A DNA stretch of 64,000 nt from positions 1,922,001 to 1,986,000 of the forward strand of contig OY101117.1 in assembly GCA_956465555.1 (NCBI GenBank), given 5' to 3'. Of the stretch, positions 1,181 through 48,531 are shown piece by piece. How positions within the stretch are numbered: position 1 is the first letter of the stretch; the number at the start of each line of letters is the position of its first letter. This DNA comes from Nitzschia sp. pyKryTriq1 (taxonomy: Eukaryota; Bacillariophyta; Bacillariophyceae; Bacillariales; Bacillariaceae). Under the pieces are notes generated by a model. That model ran no database searches. It had not been told where the DNA came from and saw nothing but the letters and a program-made list of their open reading frames with translations. The translations under genes were made by a program, and so were the position numbers.

Positions 1181-1396
1181 GTAGGGGAAGGTCGACGAAC
1201 ATTTATATACACCCGTCGGAGTAGGGGAAGGTCGACGAACATTTTTAATTGATTACTTATATATACCCGTCGGAGTAGGGGAAGATCGACGAACATTTTT
1301 ATTGATTAATTATATGTGCCCTTCGGAGTTGGGGAAGGTCGACGAACATTTTTGATTCATTACTTATATAGGCCCTTCGGAGTTGGGGAAGGTCGA
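1181..1396. repeat. Tandem repeat, 5 units, period about 54 bp
   Basis: Units begin with GT(A/T)GGGGAAGGTCGACGAAC at 1181, 1221, 1274, 1328 and 1382, so the spacings are 40, 53, 54 and 54. Each unit continues with an AT-rich stretch (ATTTTTxATTGATTA) and ends in CCCGTCGGA or CCCTTCGGA. The first unit is shortened and the last is cut off. There is no open frame through it. Confidence 0.85.
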
Positions 1397-24260: not shown

Positions 24261-25395
24261 CTCCCCCAAGACATTTCTCACTTAGATGCCTTGTATCAGT
24301 TGTTAATTGTTTTTATTGCTAGGCGGGCGTGGTCTTTTGCAGGCGTGCGTGGTCAGAGGGCCGACGCTTCACGTCATAGTAACCATTACACACTGCAGTA
24401 CGAGCCGCGCGCGCTTTGGAATTGTCGGGCTTCGCCTCGAAGTGTATTTTTTTTCCGGCCATTCTTGGCGCTTCGGGTCGTGTTGAAGTTGTGTTTTTAT
24501 TACTCATGGTGCGGTCGTACGCTCCTTTATGTTGTTGATATGCCCATATTTGGTGTGGGCGGGTGGGCGCTGCTCGCTCTTCCACTTATTGGTTATTCTT
24601 GTGTGTATGTGCCCTTCACTGGGGGCGTGCAACGACTCGTAGTTACGGGATTCAATTCGTGATTTAAAGTAGATGAAATTAAAAGAAGTGAGACTATTTT
24701 TCTGGGGTGTTTTGAGAGATGAATCTTTTGTAATCGTAAGGTAGTCGTGAAGTGTCAGGGGCACGAACGACTTATCATAAATGTAGTGGTGATGGCGATC
24801 TTGGATGTCTTGTGAAGTTTGTGAAGTAAGGATCGCCTCTAGATGAAATGCAGTAGTCATTGACGGAGGTGTCACGACTAGTAGGAACGCTTGCGTCAAG
24901 GTAAACGTTGGCCAGCGTAGCATCATCAAGCTCGGCCTGCGCGATGGGCGCGCCAGGCAGGAGCGCAAGTAGGCGATTGTGGTAGCGAAGGAGGGAGAGG
25001 AACATTTCGGGGTCGACCTCTCCCGGTTTCCTGAGCGACAGGAGGAACTTCTTATGGACGTGGTAGTCGTCCGGCTGAAAGCGTTGCGAAGTGAACTCAC
25101 TGATCGCTTGATCGAAGTTGGCGACTGTCTCGTTGAGACCGGTGGTGATGTCGTCCCACTTGGTCTCGTGGTCGTCTTCAAGATGCATTTGAAATTTGTT
25201 AAAAAGTCGGGGACCAGTAGTCCACGACATGACTCGTCGAGCCTTCTCGGGCGGGAAGGGTGGGATTTTTCTTCTTTTCTCCCCCGAGTTTGTAGTGCCC
25301 TTCTGCTACACTGTGGGCGTGTGTTGCAATTGTGCCGTGCGGGTGATCAGGCCGTCGGTATATTGCGATGATTTTTGTTTATGGTTGTTATTATT

Positions 25396-25547
25396 TATAG
25401 TAGGTTGGTTGGTCGAGAAGCACTGCTACCTCTTGAGGCTTCCGTACGGAACTCCTCCCAATGGTTTGCTTGTTATAGTAGGTTAGTTGGTCGAGAAGCG
25501 CTGCTACCTCTTGAGGCTTCCATACGGAACTCCTCCCAATGTTTCGC
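25396..25547. repeat. 78-bp tandem duplication inside the fossil element
   Basis: Two copies starting with TATAGTAGGTTxGTTGG at 25396 and 25474, differing by only a few bases; the second copy is slightly shorter. Confidence 0.85.
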
Positions 25548-25864
25548 TAGCGTGTTATTTTATGATTATTGTTTTTAGTGGTTGTTATTTTTACGGCGCA
25601 ACGGCACACTTCAATGGGGGCTTATCTTTTGGACCCGAATTGGGTTGTTTAATGGTGGATTGTTGAGTGGCTCTACGGCGCACAGATAGGGCTTATCTAA
25701 GCTCTTGTTGTTCTTTTGTCTTCTTGTTATTATTGCCCTTGTCAGGGGCTTTTTGCTGTTCGGATTAGTCAATTGCGCGAACCTTCGCGTTGGGTTTGTT
25801 CGTACGTTGATTTTTTGTGCTATGAATTCATAATGCACTATGCATGCAGTCAGGAGTCACGTCT

Positions 25865-42642: not shown

Positions 42643-43463
42643 TTAGCAGCAGCCGCCCACGGAGGACTTGGGCGCCTCATCCGTAGGAGTTGATAGATTG
42701 ATCGGTCGATTATCGCCAGCCATGGAAGCTTGGTCCGTGCTTGCGGCGCCGGGAACAGCTCCGCCAGATCCTTCAAATTCGTCAATTCGTTTGTGCTTGA
42801 TGGTGGTGGCCAGCGCCGTGAACATTTTCTCCACATTTTGGCCCGTGAGGGCAGACGTCTCAAAAAACTGTACACCGTACTCATCTGCCAGTTGTTTGCC
42901 TTCCTCCAACGTTACGACTCTGTCATTATCCAAATCACTCTTGTTACCACAAAGTACAATGTCGCAATCAGCAGGAGCCCTCGTTTTAATGTCTCTCATC
43001 CATCCAATCACATGATCAAAGGAGGGTCTGTTGGAGATGTCGTATGTCAGAACGAAGCCATCTGCTCGTCCGAAAAAGTTGGAAGTCAGCGATCGGAATC
43101 GTTCTTGTCCCGCCGTGTCCCACAGCTGCAATCGCATTGGGGCGCCTTCGATCTATGATTACACGTAGAAGTATCGTTCGAAAACAAGACAAAATCGAGT
43201 ACCAAGAAGCGTGAGAATACGTAAGACTTGCCACACTCCTGAGCTGAGCTGTTTCCAAGCAGAACGCGTCGTACCTTGACCATTTTATCTCTGTAATCCA
43301 CGCCGATTGTTGTGACAAACTTAGTAGAGAAGACATTTTGATCGAATCGAAGGACCAAAGACGTCTTCCCACATGAAGAATCTCCAACCATCAGCAAACG
43401 AACAATATAAGCGCCTTTCGCCCCCATTTGAAGCGGGCGTGGTTGCCCTCCTTGGCCTTCCAT
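42643..43463 (-). CDS. Rab-family small GTPase
   Basis: Predicted exons complement(42643..43152, 43275..43463), 232 residues. G-box motifs: GDSSCGKTS (P-loop), TTIGVDYRDK (effector loop), WDTAGQERFRS (switch II), NKSDLD and ETSA. It ends in GGCC, the double-cysteine site for two geranylgeranyl groups, so it cycles on and off membranes during vesicle transport. The effector loop suggests the Rab1/Rab8 group, but the exact Rab is not fixed. The start ATGGAAGG is the first ATG with a sensible N-terminus; a longer frame upstream is leader. The intron splits beta-strands 2 and 3 at a common Rab position. Confidence 0.93.
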
Positions 43464-43915
43464 GGTTCTTGGTTTGCAAAAACTGATACAGATTACTACT
43501 ACGTGCAACAACTAAGCACTAACAGACACAACAGAGTCTCTTGAGAGGCGGTGCGGCAGTGCTTTGTTCCCCTGGTTGCTGTCGTCGTCCTCATTGTCAC
43601 TCGTGCTGCCGCTCGCCGCTCATCATTGCCGCCGGCGGGGTGCTAGCTGGCTAGCGTCATCAGAACACGAATCGCACCGGATAGAACTTCCGAAGGACAC
43701 TCATCTAAAGTATGCTAAAACTGTCGACTTCGACGTTGATAGAGCGTGCACAGCCCTTTTGCGCGGGCCAGCAATGCTCCCGCCGTTTTTCGTAAATTCC
43801 GCGCGCGTTCTTTCATTCGCCAGCAACCTGCGGTACTTTCGGGATTTCTTGGGTTCACGAAAACTGCAGAACATGCCGGCGCATAAAATAACAGATACTG
43901 AACGGACAGTACGAC
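43464..43915. other. Intergenic before the GGAATTCC array
   Basis: About 450 bp upstream of the Rab gene. Open frame without motifs. No gene supported. Confidence 0.45.
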
Positions 43916-43916
43916 A

Positions 43917-44070
43917 TGGAATTCCGAATCCCAATTCGGAATTCCATTTTGGATATTGGAATTCCATTTTGGAAATTGGAATTCCATTTTCCATTTTGGA
44001 ATTCCATTTTGGAAATTGGAATTCCATTTTCCATTTTGGAATTCCAAAATGGAATTTGGAATTCCAAAAG
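43917..44070. repeat. GGAATTCC array, left: 8 units with a strict 20-bp period
   Basis: Eight GGAATTCC palindromes spaced exactly 20 bp apart (first at 43918). Spacers are AT-rich variants of ATTTTGGAAATT or ATTTTCCATTTT and mirror those of the right array when reverse-complemented. Each unit is a palindrome within a larger palindromic array. Open frames here encode MEFQ/NSKME-type repeats and are products of the array. Confidence 0.92.
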
Positions 44071-44673
44071 GGGGCGAGTGCCGACTAAGGGGTCGCTCCC
44101 GCCACTCCAGTCAAGCGACAGTAAATCACAGCGCTACGGATCCGTTGGAAGCGCGCTATTTTAAAAGGTGTTTCTGCTATTTCACAACGCGCGTGCCACA
44201 ATTAATACGTCAGCAAATAACGATATTGCGTGATATAAAAAATAAAATTACACAGCGATTTCGATTTCTCGTGATCATCATCTAATCTCTTATTCTACAG
44301 TATTACTGTTCTCTTACGATACTACTCGCTCATACATGTAAGTTTTAACGTCCAACATACAACTACTGTAGAGTACTGTATTCAAACTACCGTAGAGTAC
44401 TGTATTCAAACGCTACGAGTACTCGTTGTACAGTCCTGTAGTTGTACCGGTACCGGTACGCACAACAATCAAAATAGGCCGGCGACCATGGGATTATTTT
44501 TCATGCGCGGCCGGCGCGAGAAGAAGCGCCAGTGCGCTTGAGAATACTTGTACCGGTACCTGGTACTGTACGAGTACCGGTAGTTGTACAGGGCAGTTGG
44601 GTATGGTTCTCTGGTACAGGGCGCAGCGGGGGGCGTTCGTTGCGAACCGCTCACCCCCTTAGGCAAATAAAAC
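44071..44673. other. 603-bp spacer between inverted GGAATTCC arrays
   Basis: AT-rich first half (44160-44300), then a GTAC cluster at 44370-44590 including GTACCGGTACCGGTAC at about 44444-44459 and ACCGGTACCTGGTACTGTACGAGTACCGG at about 44550-44580. Both inner edges carry a short CTAAGGGG-like match in opposite directions. No gene supported. Confidence 0.6.
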
Positions 44674-44826
44674 TTGGAATTCCAAAATGGAAAATGGAAT
44701 TCCAATTTCCAAAATGGAATTCCAAAATGGAATTTGGAATTCCAATTTCCATTTTGGAATTCCAAAATAGAAATTGGAATTCCAATTTCCAAAATGGAAT
44801 TCCAAAATGGAATTTGGAATTCCAAG
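44674..44826. repeat. GGAATTCC array, right: 8 units with a strict 20-bp period, inverted relative to the left array
   Basis: Eight GGAATTCC palindromes at an exact 20-bp spacing (first at 44675) with AAAATGGAAAAT, AATTTCCAAAAT and AAAATGGAATTT spacers. The reverse complement reads like the left array. Confidence 0.92.
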
Positions 44827-45189
44827 GGCTTATGTATTTAAATTGACACTTAGGATTTTCGGGTTCAACGGTTCGCTGCAATTCTGCCGATAGCCGGAGA
44901 AATCCCGAAATTACCGCAGGTTGCAGAGCAGGCAGGTGTGGCTCGACAGCCGGCCAGACGGACGGAGGCAGGAGGAGTTTCCCAGGGGGCTAAATTAGCC
45001 CTTTGAGTTTCCAATGGAAGGCGCACGTCTCACAACGGCTGCGTCAGCTCACCGTCCTACGTCATGTCATTGCCCTATGCACGAGGTAGTCCACAAGAAT
45101 GATTGAAAGTGAAAATTATGAGCTAGAGATGAATTGTTATTTTGGAACTACTTGTTTCAAAATCAATTGTTGAGAAAAGATATTGCGCT
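44827..45189. other. Intergenic 363 bp after the arrays
   Basis: G-rich segment near 44935-44990 (CCAGACGGACGGAGGCAGGAGG). No gene or clear repeat. Confidence 0.4.
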
Positions 45190-45577
45190 GACTTGGCAAA
45201 ATATTAATCTTGCATCATGACTTTCACATGGTTGACCTAGTCGTTTACGAGCATTTCGGAGAATTCCGCCATGAATTCGGTGCCTCGGTCGAAGGTGACT
45301 TCTTGAGGCCACGGGTAGCGTGCGCGTTGTCTGCGCGTTCGATGGATTCCATGCGCTCGCAGAAATCCACGAATTCGGTGACATTTGCGTCGACCCAGTC
45401 GAAATCGTGTTCGATCATTTTTCGTTGCCACGAGCGAGGAATTCCGAATTCCATCAGATCGACAATTTCGTCTTCATCCAATTTGGCTGCTGGCGGTCCG
45501 CCAATGGTTGCAGGAGGAAATTTGGGCAGATACGAGTTGAGTTCGTTAATTCGAGCGGCGAACTGTTTAGTACTCAT
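45190..45577 (-). mobile_element. Broken LTR-retroelement relic: gag and integrase pieces side by side
   Basis: The minus strand carries a gag-like piece (about 45300-45577; motifs DEDEIVDLMEFGIPRSWQRK and EFVDFCERMESIE) next to an integrase-core piece (about 45225-45320; RYPWPQEVTFDRGTEF, matching the D-rich integrase motif FDxGxEF). The region between gag and integrase (protease, reverse transcriptase) is gone, so this is an internally deleted, broken fossil. No terminal repeats found. Family probably Ty3/gypsy-like by the integrase piece. Older than the 24-kb element. Confidence 0.6.
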
Positions 45578-45912: not shown

Positions 45913-48531
45913 TCAATCGATTTCGTCTCCGTTGTTACCATCTTGTTCTTGTGGTGATCGCTCAGCAACACTTTCCCTTGGTGTACTACAAGTTGAAGCT
46001 TTCAATTGCTCCATTTCCCGACGAAGCTTTTCAATCATTTCGTCCTTTTCAATAAGCTCCTTCTTTTGCTGCTCCAGCTCAGATTCTCTTCGTTCCAAAG
46101 ACTTTCGGAGCAGGGCATTGTGCAACTCTCCCGCATTTTCACCCTGCTGCTCCGTTTGGACTAAGGTCATTTTCGGTGTCGTCAGAGAAAGCGAACCTTG
46201 AGTTCGGAGGGAGGACAGTTTCCTGAGAATAGAATTTGCTGAGGGTCGTTGAACAGGTTCTGGATGCGTACATGCCAAGATAATATTTGCAATGTCCGGG
46301 TAGTGGTCCACGAGCCATTGTTGTACACCTTGTTGTTGACGACACTGTTGGAAGTTATGCAGTCTCTCATGTTCCGTCTCGAAGCAACACACCAACTCCA
46401 AAAAGATCAGTCCCATACTAAATATGTCTGCGGCCGTCGAATATGTCTTTGATGTCAATTGTTCCGGCGCTGCATAGGAACGAGTTCCGATACCTGCGGT
46501 CAATAGAGGATTGCTCGGAGTGGGTGCTTTGCGAAACTGAGCCATGGCGGTCGAGGGGTTTGGCCTTGGTATCATGGTTCCCTTCTTAGCATTATGCCAG
46601 TGTTCAGTATGAGAGTTTGACGAGAAATCATCCAAACCAAAAGAAGATTTGGGCTCAGAGCTACACACGTCATCATCGGTTGTCTTTTTGTTCCCGTTAC
46701 GGGTCATATCCAGTAGCTGCTTGCTGAGTCCAAAGTCCCCAATTTTGATTACTTGACCATCCTTACTAGCGAAAATATTGGCAGGCTTTAGATCTCGATG
46801 AATAATCTCCTTTTCGTGTACATGCGCCAGTCCTTTGACTATTTGTTCGAAAATCTTGAGAGCTGGTCCGACCCGTTGCTGATAGTCCTTCTCGGAAACT
46901 TTGGAGTTGCGTTCACGGATCCAGTCCGCCAAAGAGGCCGAATGACATAGTTGCATTTGTATGTACAGAGAAATTTGGTAACGGTACGCAGGCTTTACTG
47001 ATACTGGATTCCCTCCATTCTTTCGGCCACGGTTCGGAGCGTCCTGGGGATTCCTGCCTTTCTTCATGAACAGAATAGAGGACGATGAATCCTCATGAAT
47101 CCCCGCGCGCTCAAATTCATCCAAACTTTGATCATGATAGCTTTCCCAATTTTGATCGCTAGAGTCCACACTGCTTCCAAAAGAGAATCGGCGTCGCCGC
47201 TGCCATAAACCACTGGAGGAAGCCTCTTCGCTCTCGAACGATTCACCACCGCCTTGCTCGTAGAAGCGACTGCTCTCATAAGTATTGTCGGATGGATCCG
47301 CGAATCTACTATTCATGGCGGCATCATCCCCCAACGTACCTGGATTCATGAGATCCGGCAATTCGTTTGTCAGTAACAAGCGACGCTGCTGTTGACGTCG
47401 CTGTTGTGCATGAGTTGGCGAGCCCGCTGGGGAAGTGGCGGCCGAGGCCTTTGCTTCGACGGTTGTCGGACCACCCGTCATCCATGATGGCTCCAACCAA
47501 CTTGTGTAGTATCGGACCACGTTGGGATGATCACTGACCTTGGCTAAACACTCAACTTCTCGTACAACTTCTTGGATCGAATCCTTTGAATACCCAGTAG
47601 CATCAAACTCCACCTTTTTAAGGGCATAGTCACAGCCATCCATTTTGCGAGTCGCATGAAAAACGTGACCAAAAGATCCTGATGCCAGCAGAGCTATTTG
47701 CACAAATTCCCGCTGATATCGACTCAGAGATAAAGGAAAATGTTTCACATCCCATGGTTGTTGTAAGTTTGTGTCGTTGATCGAAGCACTGGTGGGGTTA
47801 CCGACAGCAGGGGTGCTGTCACCTTCCTCTTCGCGAGAGCGGCTTTGCTGTAGGTGTTCGTATTGTGCTAGAGTTGCTCGAATTGCGTAGGCTTCCGCAG
47901 ATCGTTGTGGGTCCCCCGAAGCGGCAAAGACAGCCGCCAGTTTGGTAGTCATGTTGTTCGTAGTGGTAAGTGCAAGTTCGTGGGCGATTTCCTCACATGC
48001 TGCTGACGTTATGGAATCATCTGTACCGCCACCCTCTGACGAAGATAAACTCGAGACTGCCGCAGAATCTTCTCTTTTTACGCTTTTGCCCTGGACATTC
48101 ACCGATTTATCGACTGCTGTCAGCAACTGCCGAGTAATTGTTGGAGATATATTTGGCACCAACCCGAGTTCAAACAAAAAATGAATCGATTCCCTATCCA
48201 AAATCCCTCTTTCATACAACTCTACCACATGAATCGTAAATGTTTTGGGTGTTGGATCATGAAGGGCGCAGACTTGCGCCAAGAGCATTAAGAGGAGGAC
48301 TTGTCTCTCCTGATCAGCACTGACTGTGGCGTCTTCGGCATTGCTGTTCAAATGGTTGTTGGTTTCGGCAGACTGGAAGCTCTGTTGATGGAATGAAGCA
48401 GTGTGAACGCTTGGCCGGCTGGACGGCGAGGAGTCTTCCACCGACTGCACGGATGCCTCTGAAGCATCAATATTAGAGACACCACCGGTGTATTCCACAC
48501 CCGAAATGTCGGCATCACGAGACTGACGCAT
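45913..48531 (-). CDS. eIF2-alpha kinase (GCN2/PERK/HRI-like)
   Basis: Single exon, 872 residues. A low-complexity N-terminus is followed by a helical region (about 75-190), then a split kinase domain: [20 protein letters not shown] (glycine loop), YALKKVEF lysine, [20 protein letters not shown], an insert of about 150 residues rich in Ser/Glu/Gln, then [16 protein letters not shown], catalytic [23 protein letters not shown], a second insert, and [13 protein letters not shown]. The Q(M/L)QLC motif and large insert are hallmarks of eIF2-alpha kinases, which stop translation under stress. No haem-, RNA- or lumenal sensor domain is recognisable in the N-terminus, so the stress signal is unknown. 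A C-terminal coiled coil ([20 protein letters not shown]) suggests dimers. Confidence 0.92.

What the first reader, a model, noticed from the sequence alone, without database searches (positions are those of the whole stretch)
43917..44826. Two inverted arrays of a 20-bp GGAATTCC repeat flanking a 603-bp spacer
Each array has eight GGAATTCC palindromes at an exact 20-bp pitch, close to two helical turns, so every site faces the same side of the helix. The right array is the reverse complement type of the left. The spacers only switch between ATTTT/AAAAT forms with GG or CC steps. The whole could be a foldback element, a phased protein-binding array, or a cruciform-forming unit. It fits no mobile family I know, and I recall no description of it.
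Basis: seen in the sequence. Interest (0 to 1): 0.78.

Follow-up and report, generated by a model that had tools for sequence, protein, structure and literature searches.

The report
Diatom transposon with mirrored repeat arrays
The two mirrored arrays are the inner arms of a small jumping DNA element that seems unable to move by itself, found at eleven places in this diatom's genome; it is a new family of a known kind whose driving enzyme is still missing.

Summary
In detail: two arrays of eight GGAATTCC at an exact 20-bp pitch, in inverted orientation. They are the subterminal arms of a 1,100-bp non-autonomous DNA transposon, window 43824-44923, with 26-bp terminal inverted repeats (one mismatch) and a 3-bp CAG target-site duplication. 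The genome (40.65 Mb, pennate diatom) holds 11 loci with these ends: 6 with both ends and identical CAG or CTG duplications (6 of 6), 5 with one end. All 17 ends found abut CWG. Four copies differ by at most one base and one 5-bp indel in unrelated flanks, so movement is recent. Four paralogous sites lacking the insert match the joined flanks of one copy. Array length varies and has collapsed to one core in one copy. No coding match in six frames; no autonomous partner found. CWG duplications point to a NuwaI-like PHIS (PIF/Harbinger-related) transposase, but the termini differ and NuwaI was described only from animals. Likeliest role of the arrays: multiple binding sites for transposase or a partner (inferred). 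A new member of a known kind.

The parts
43821..43823 (.). left copy of the 3-bp target-site duplication, CAG
   Evidence: identical CAG at 44924-44926; 6 of 6 two-ended copies have identical CAG or CTG on both sides
43824..43849 (+). left terminal inverted repeat, 26 bp, CAACCTGCGGTACTTTCGGGATTTCT
   Evidence: 17 such ends in the genome at up to 3 mismatches, reversed-pattern control 0; length and mismatch
43850..43916 (+). left unique subterminal stretch
   Evidence: sequence; conserved in copies
43917..44067 (+). left array: eight TGGAATTCC-type cores at 20 bp
44068..44673 (+). 606-bp spacer without recognised coding
   Evidence: shared by other copies; no Pfam match in six frames of the element, stops read as X
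44674..44825 (-). right array: eight cores at 20 bp, inverted relative to the left array
44826..44897 (+). right unique subterminal stretch
   Evidence: sequence; conserved in copies
44898..44923 (-). right terminal inverted repeat, 26 bp, one mismatch to the left
44924..44926 (.). right copy of the target-site duplication, CAG

Best explanation
Window 43824-44923 is one copy of a non-autonomous cut-and-paste DNA transposon family. A transposase supplied from elsewhere recognises the 26-bp terminal inverted repeats and inserts the element at CWG trinucleotides, which are duplicated (ends, duplications and dispersed copies shown; the enzyme inferred). The arrays, read as TGGA half-sites every 6-7 bp with a palindromic TGGAATTCCA every 20 bp, most likely serve as multiple binding sites for the transposase or a partner DNA-binding protein that brings the two ends together (inferred). 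The arrays lengthen, shorten and collapse by exchange or slippage between units (length differences shown, mechanism inferred). The mobilising enzyme is most likely of the PHIS group (PIF/Harbinger-related, NuwaI-like), inferred from the CWG duplication alone; I put that part at about one half and the binding-site role at about one half. The confidence below is for the transposon identity together with recent movement.
For: Six of six two-ended copies carry identical flanking CAG or CTG, and 17 of 17 ends found abut CWG. The window copy and L048 (C3:2489122) are identical over all 1,100 bp; L049 (C1:874455) differs by one 5-bp length difference only; L050 (C2:2775475) by that and one base. Flanks of the six copies (500 bp each side, 30 same-side comparisons) score 8-15 in 29 of 30, opposite-side controls 8-12; the exception, window against L054 on the right, is a different shared repeat. 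Four paralogous sites lacking the insert align through the junction of the joined L054 flanks. Arrays vary: 8+8 cores in four copies, 8 and 4 in L054, 6 in L052's left, one core in L057. 44 of 45 cores are exact while linkers come in 14 forms. Four matches over the cut-off (of 5 in all) to PF13359, a domain of PIF/Harbinger-type transposases (recalled), exist in the genome.
Against: No autonomous partner was found: an 18-base end pattern with up to 2 mismatches gave the 17 known ends plus 7 unpaired matches, against 13 for the reversed control. In the 1.5-kb flanks held, none of the 5 PF13359 loci has a CWG-flanked inverted repeat of the kind scanned for; one weak end-like match in L060 stands alone. 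The termini begin CAACC, not the GGG usual for NuwaI (passage). Protein binding to the arrays is untested. The four paralogous sites read CGG where the inserted site has CTG, so the ancestral target trinucleotide is inferred; the other five two-ended copies gave no junction-spanning match. L057, with a single core, still has both ends and a duplication.
Confidence: 0.9

Rival explanations
1. Same transposon, but the arrays have no role in movement: they are passive tandem expansions produced by slippage or abortive gap repair inside the arms.
For: Array length differs widely between copies, and copy L057 with a single core still has both ends and a CAG duplication. Gap-repair expansion was proposed for Medicago MtPH-A6-4 (passage).
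Against: Cores are nearly invariant (44 of 45) while linkers vary, and 5 of 6 two-ended copies keep inverted arrays at both ends. Shared descent and homogenisation could also give this.
Confidence: 0.35
2. The arrays act at the chromatin or secondary-structure level: hairpin or cruciform formation, or nucleosome placement (each array is about 150 bp in the young copies).
For: The left array alone folds at -51.5 kcal/mol against -24.4 (sd 3.17) for 200 shuffles, z -8.55. In the prediction for the whole element the two arms pair in long stems (no shuffle control at that length).
Against: A 10-bp dinucleotide rhythm is absent and the strong rhythm is 6.67 bp. Array length varies from one to eight cores. 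Single-strand folding shows potential only.
Confidence: 0.1
3. Segmental duplication or an assembly artefact rather than a transposon.
For: Two copies are identical and two more nearly so.
Against: Unrelated flanks, precise ends, 3-bp duplications, paralogous sites without the insert, and copies on six contigs, C1, C2, C3, C4, C9, C11.
Confidence: 0.02

Closest known systems
NuwaI group of the PHIS superfamily (Han et al. 2015, PMC4482050; passages seen)
   Same: 5'-CWG-3' target-site duplication; terminal inverted repeat of 26 bp lies within their 12-61 bp range.
   Different: Their termini usually start GGG, here CAACC; reported there only from animals, here a diatom; no transposase seen in this family.
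MtPH-A6-4 PIF/Harbinger elements of Medicago (PMC2213677; passages seen)
   Same: 3-bp duplications and variable tandem repeats in subterminal regions, in some elements on both sides in opposite orientation; repeats tied to internal rearrangement.
   Different: 60-bp repeat unit (2-35 repeats) rather than 20 bp with a palindromic core; PIF/Harbinger TWA duplication (recalled) rather than CWG.
Galileo, a Foldback-like P-superfamily element of Drosophila (PMC3688188; passages seen)
   Same: Tandem repeats inside long inverted arms; there they hold binding sites for the transposase's THAP domain.
   Different: Different superfamily, arms over 1 kb, different duplication length (recalled).
MITEs in general (recalled)
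   Same: Short, non-coding, terminal inverted repeats, small target-site duplication.
   Different: 1.1 kb and only 11 loci; internal arrays.

Membership tests
Non-autonomous TIR DNA transposon | terminal inverted repeats shared by dispersed copies | tested here: met
   17 ends at 11 loci; 6 with both ends, 5 with one end in the stretch fetched
Non-autonomous TIR DNA transposon | target-site duplication of fixed length | tested here: met
   3 bp, CAG or CTG, 6 of 6
Non-autonomous TIR DNA transposon | sites without the insert | tested here: met
   paralogous sites for 1 of 6 copies (L054), 4 sites, with CGG in place of CTG
Non-autonomous TIR DNA transposon | no transposase gene of its own | tested here: met
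   ORFs of 50 aa or more listed; no Pfam match at E 0.01 in six frames; introns not modelled
NuwaI (PHIS) | CWG duplication | tested here: met
NuwaI (PHIS) | termini usually starting GGG | tested here: not met
   termini start CAACC; feature from passage
NuwaI (PHIS) | autonomous member with DDE transposase and Myb/SANT protein | tested here: inconclusive
   PF13359 domains present in the genome but none linked to these ends
PIF/Harbinger in the strict sense | TWA duplication (recalled) | tested here: not met
   CWG
Foldback elements | long inverted arms made of tandem repeats | tested here: met
Foldback elements | 8-10 bp duplication of the classical type (recalled) | tested here: not met
   3 bp

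The most novel reading that the evidence does not exclude
The linkers change almost only by complement exchange (A to T, G to C) in 8 variable columns out of 20, while keeping the pattern of weak and strong bases. This would fit arrays that are constantly rewritten by strand switching inside hairpins, with selection keeping an array of TGGA half-sites: a foldback arm that evolves by flipping small segments, in a CWG-targeting transposon outside animals.
Probability: 0.2. Interest if true: 0.55.

Novelty: new member of a known kind. Interest (0 to 1): 0.36.

Why it matters
It adds a recently active, CWG-targeting transposon family to diatoms; the CWG-targeting NuwaI group was reported only from animals in the survey of PMC4482050 (passage). 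Its copies, with arrays of one to eight cores, form a natural series for testing what subterminal repeats do in transposition.

Tried and rejected
Autonomous partner: the C11 copy (L056) has a 66-aa open stretch beside its array. It turned out to be part of another dispersed repeat, with 4 other matches in the genome and none of this family's ends or arrays in those four loci, apart from one weak end-like match (within five mismatches) in L069 taken as chance. PF04827 gave nothing, but its 14 control genomes also gave nothing, so this is no evidence. Inverted-repeat scans of the five PF13359 loci gave 1, 5, 0, 5 and 2 candidates against 0-6 in shuffled sequence.

Bent DNA or nucleosome phasing: rejected as leading idea because the 10-bp rhythm is absent. 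Viral contigs: no exact match to one array pattern or to the end pattern. Bacterial and archaeal genomes: two contigs with three or more cores at 20 bp but unrelated linkers, read as unrelated tandem repeats. Of the 86 GGAATTCC pairs at 20 bp in the genome (listing cut), 83 lie in the copies by my count, one at C1:2382250 is an unrelated palindrome, and two were not listed and not seen; (52 matches, up to 2 mismatches of one unit) lists only places in known copies.

Literature: word searches (open-licence PubMed Central only) showed no description of this family in the listings; a repeat-library entry would not show there. Also looked at: PMC2872659 (abstract and outline), PMC12595863 (passages, its CWG hits are an author's initials), PMC13149256 (passages); none bears on this element.

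Corrections made on re-checking: the single difference first counted between the window copy and L048 lies in the duplicated CWG, so the elements are identical; the Pfam scan was widened from one frame to six. Confidence in the transposon identity was set at 0.9 after this.

Full report
What is there. The two arrays are as described: eight GGAATTCC at 43918-44065 and eight at 44676-44823, each step 20 bp (22 in the window against a mean of 1.3 in shuffles). The arms are inverted repeats of each other, 93 nt at 95% and 129-131 nt at 87-88% complementarity. In the plain end-to-end register the inverted match is 78% over 151 nt and the direct match 82% over 154 nt. Because the core is a palindrome, each array is also partly self-complementary, so some of the inversion is trivial; the linkers carry the orientation, and the best long matches are the inverted ones.

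The real unit. Searching the window's own genome (40.65 Mb, 20 contigs) with 43700-45050 gave several copies whose matches end at the same two points, about window 43820 and 44924, and partial ones that share one of these points. There lie 26-bp terminal inverted repeats with one mismatch. The end pattern occurs 17 times at up to 3 mismatches with a reversed-pattern control of 0. Eleven loci hold these ends. With both ends: the window copy; L048 (C3:2489122-2490221), L049 (C1:874455-875559), L050 (C2:2775475-2776579), L054 (C2:3772260-3773159) and L057 (C2:1582068-1582841). With one end in the stretch fetched: L051 (C4), L052 (C3:1730312), L053 (C2:2902516), L055 (C9) and L056 (C11). Lengths of the two-ended copies are 1100, 1100, 1105, 1105, 900 and 774 bp.

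Target-site duplication. In 6 of 6 two-ended copies the three bases outside the left end equal those outside the right end: CAG, CTG, CAG, CTG, CTG, CAG. At all 17 ends found the outside trinucleotide is CAG or CTG. The 500-bp flanks of the six copies score 8-15 in 29 of 30 same-side comparisons (opposite-side controls 8-12); the exception, window against L054 on the right, score 107, is a different repeat at window 45071-45189.

Sites without the insert. I joined 120 bp of each flank with one CWG for the six copies and searched the genome. For L054 the junction is spanned by four other places (C12, C17, C6, C2:2466918) at 78-91% identity. Read base by base they run through the junction without a gap; in one of them a 22-base extra stretch begins a few bases downstream. 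All four read CGG where the inserted site reads CTG. So L054 sits inside an older repeat and its insertion added the element plus three bases. The other five copies gave no junction-spanning match.

Age and change. Window and L048 are identical over 1,100 bp; L049 adds five bases and has no mismatch; L050 has the same five-base length difference and one mismatch. With unrelated flanks this means recent movement. L054 differs from the window copy by 37 mismatches and 208 gap columns; the long L052 match is 84% with gaps counted. Arrays by exact cores: 8+8 in the four young copies; 8 (one 13-bp step) and 4 in L054; 6 in L052's left; 5 (one irregular step) in L051's right; 7 plus one damaged in L053's right; 3 plus a changed one in L055's right; 4 plus one damaged in L056's right; and in L057 one core joining the left outer flank straight to the right outer flank. 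L057 looks like the product of exchange between the outermost cores of the two arrays, with an unrelated insert as well (inferred).

Array grammar. From nine distinct arrays (the identical arrays of the four young copies counted once) I tiled 45 in-register units. Left out: out-of-step units of L054, L051 and L055, the damaged last unit of L056, and the terminal core of each array, which has no following linker. 44 of 45 cores are exact, and the linkers come in 14 forms, of which 42 of 45 units obey W5-SS-W5. Four linker positions are nearly fixed too (44 of 45 each), so the unit reads TGGAATTCCA WWW TSSA WWW: three TGGA half-sites (either strand) per 20 bp. In the eight variable columns the two states are complements (A/T or C/G) with a single exception. 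These columns do not vary independently, so I attach no probability. The strong rhythm is 6.67 bp; power at 10-10.5 bp is below 1 in the same units in which 6.67 bp scores 23-59. This speaks against phased-A-tract bending and against a nucleosome-positioning signal.

How it probably works. Shown: inverted ends, 3-bp CWG duplications, dispersed identical or near-identical copies, insert-free paralogous sites for one copy, no Pfam match in six frames. Inferred: a transposase made elsewhere cuts it out and pastes it at CWG. The duplication matches the NuwaI group of the PHIS superfamily (passages of PMC4482050), and the genome has four PF13359 (DDE_Tnp_4) matches over the cut-off. But the termini differ from NuwaI's usual GGG, NuwaI was found only in animals in that survey, and none of the PF13359 loci could be linked to these ends in the flanks I held. 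I put the PHIS assignment at about one half. The arrays are most simply read as repeated binding sites near the ends, as reported for Galileo (passages); [quoted passage not shown] Against this, the collapsed copy L057 still has both ends and a duplication, though the collapse may have followed its insertion.

Host. The window's aspartokinase-homoserine dehydrogenase (638-aa ORF) is closest among named sources to Nitzschia sp. Nitz4 (73%), then to other diatoms; unnamed sequences reach 88%, and one 100%. The element lies between an ORF with a Ras-family match (42643-43137, minus) and an ORF with protein kinase matches (45913-48531, minus), outside both.

Verdict. A real, multi-copy, recently mobile non-autonomous transposon family with unusual short-period inverted arrays. 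A new member of a known kind; the enzyme that moves it and the role of the arrays remain open.

Noticed in passing
window 44476-44537: This piece of the element's spacer is 83-90% identical to 11 listed places, all within about 14 kb of contig ends (C2, C7, C9, C10, C17), so it resembles a subtelomeric repeat.
   Followed up: no
window 45069-45237: Another dispersed repeat right of the element: parts of it are 95-97% identical to stretches in L064 (twice) and next to copy L054.
   Followed up: partly
L056 2600-2790; L066-L069: A different repeat family, five matches in the genome including this one, abuts the right array of the C11 copy and mimics a short open frame.
   Followed up: partly
L057 2700-3270: The collapsed copy carries an insert of about 570 bp in which a stretch is directly repeated, seen by eye in the printed sequence.
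   Followed up: no
window 1203-1396 and 25395-25548: Tandem repeats of period 54 (3.6 copies) and 78 (2 copies).
   Followed up: no
L070 5799-5846: Cohnella fermenti has an unrelated 20-bp tandem repeat that also contains GGAATTCC.
   Followed up: partly
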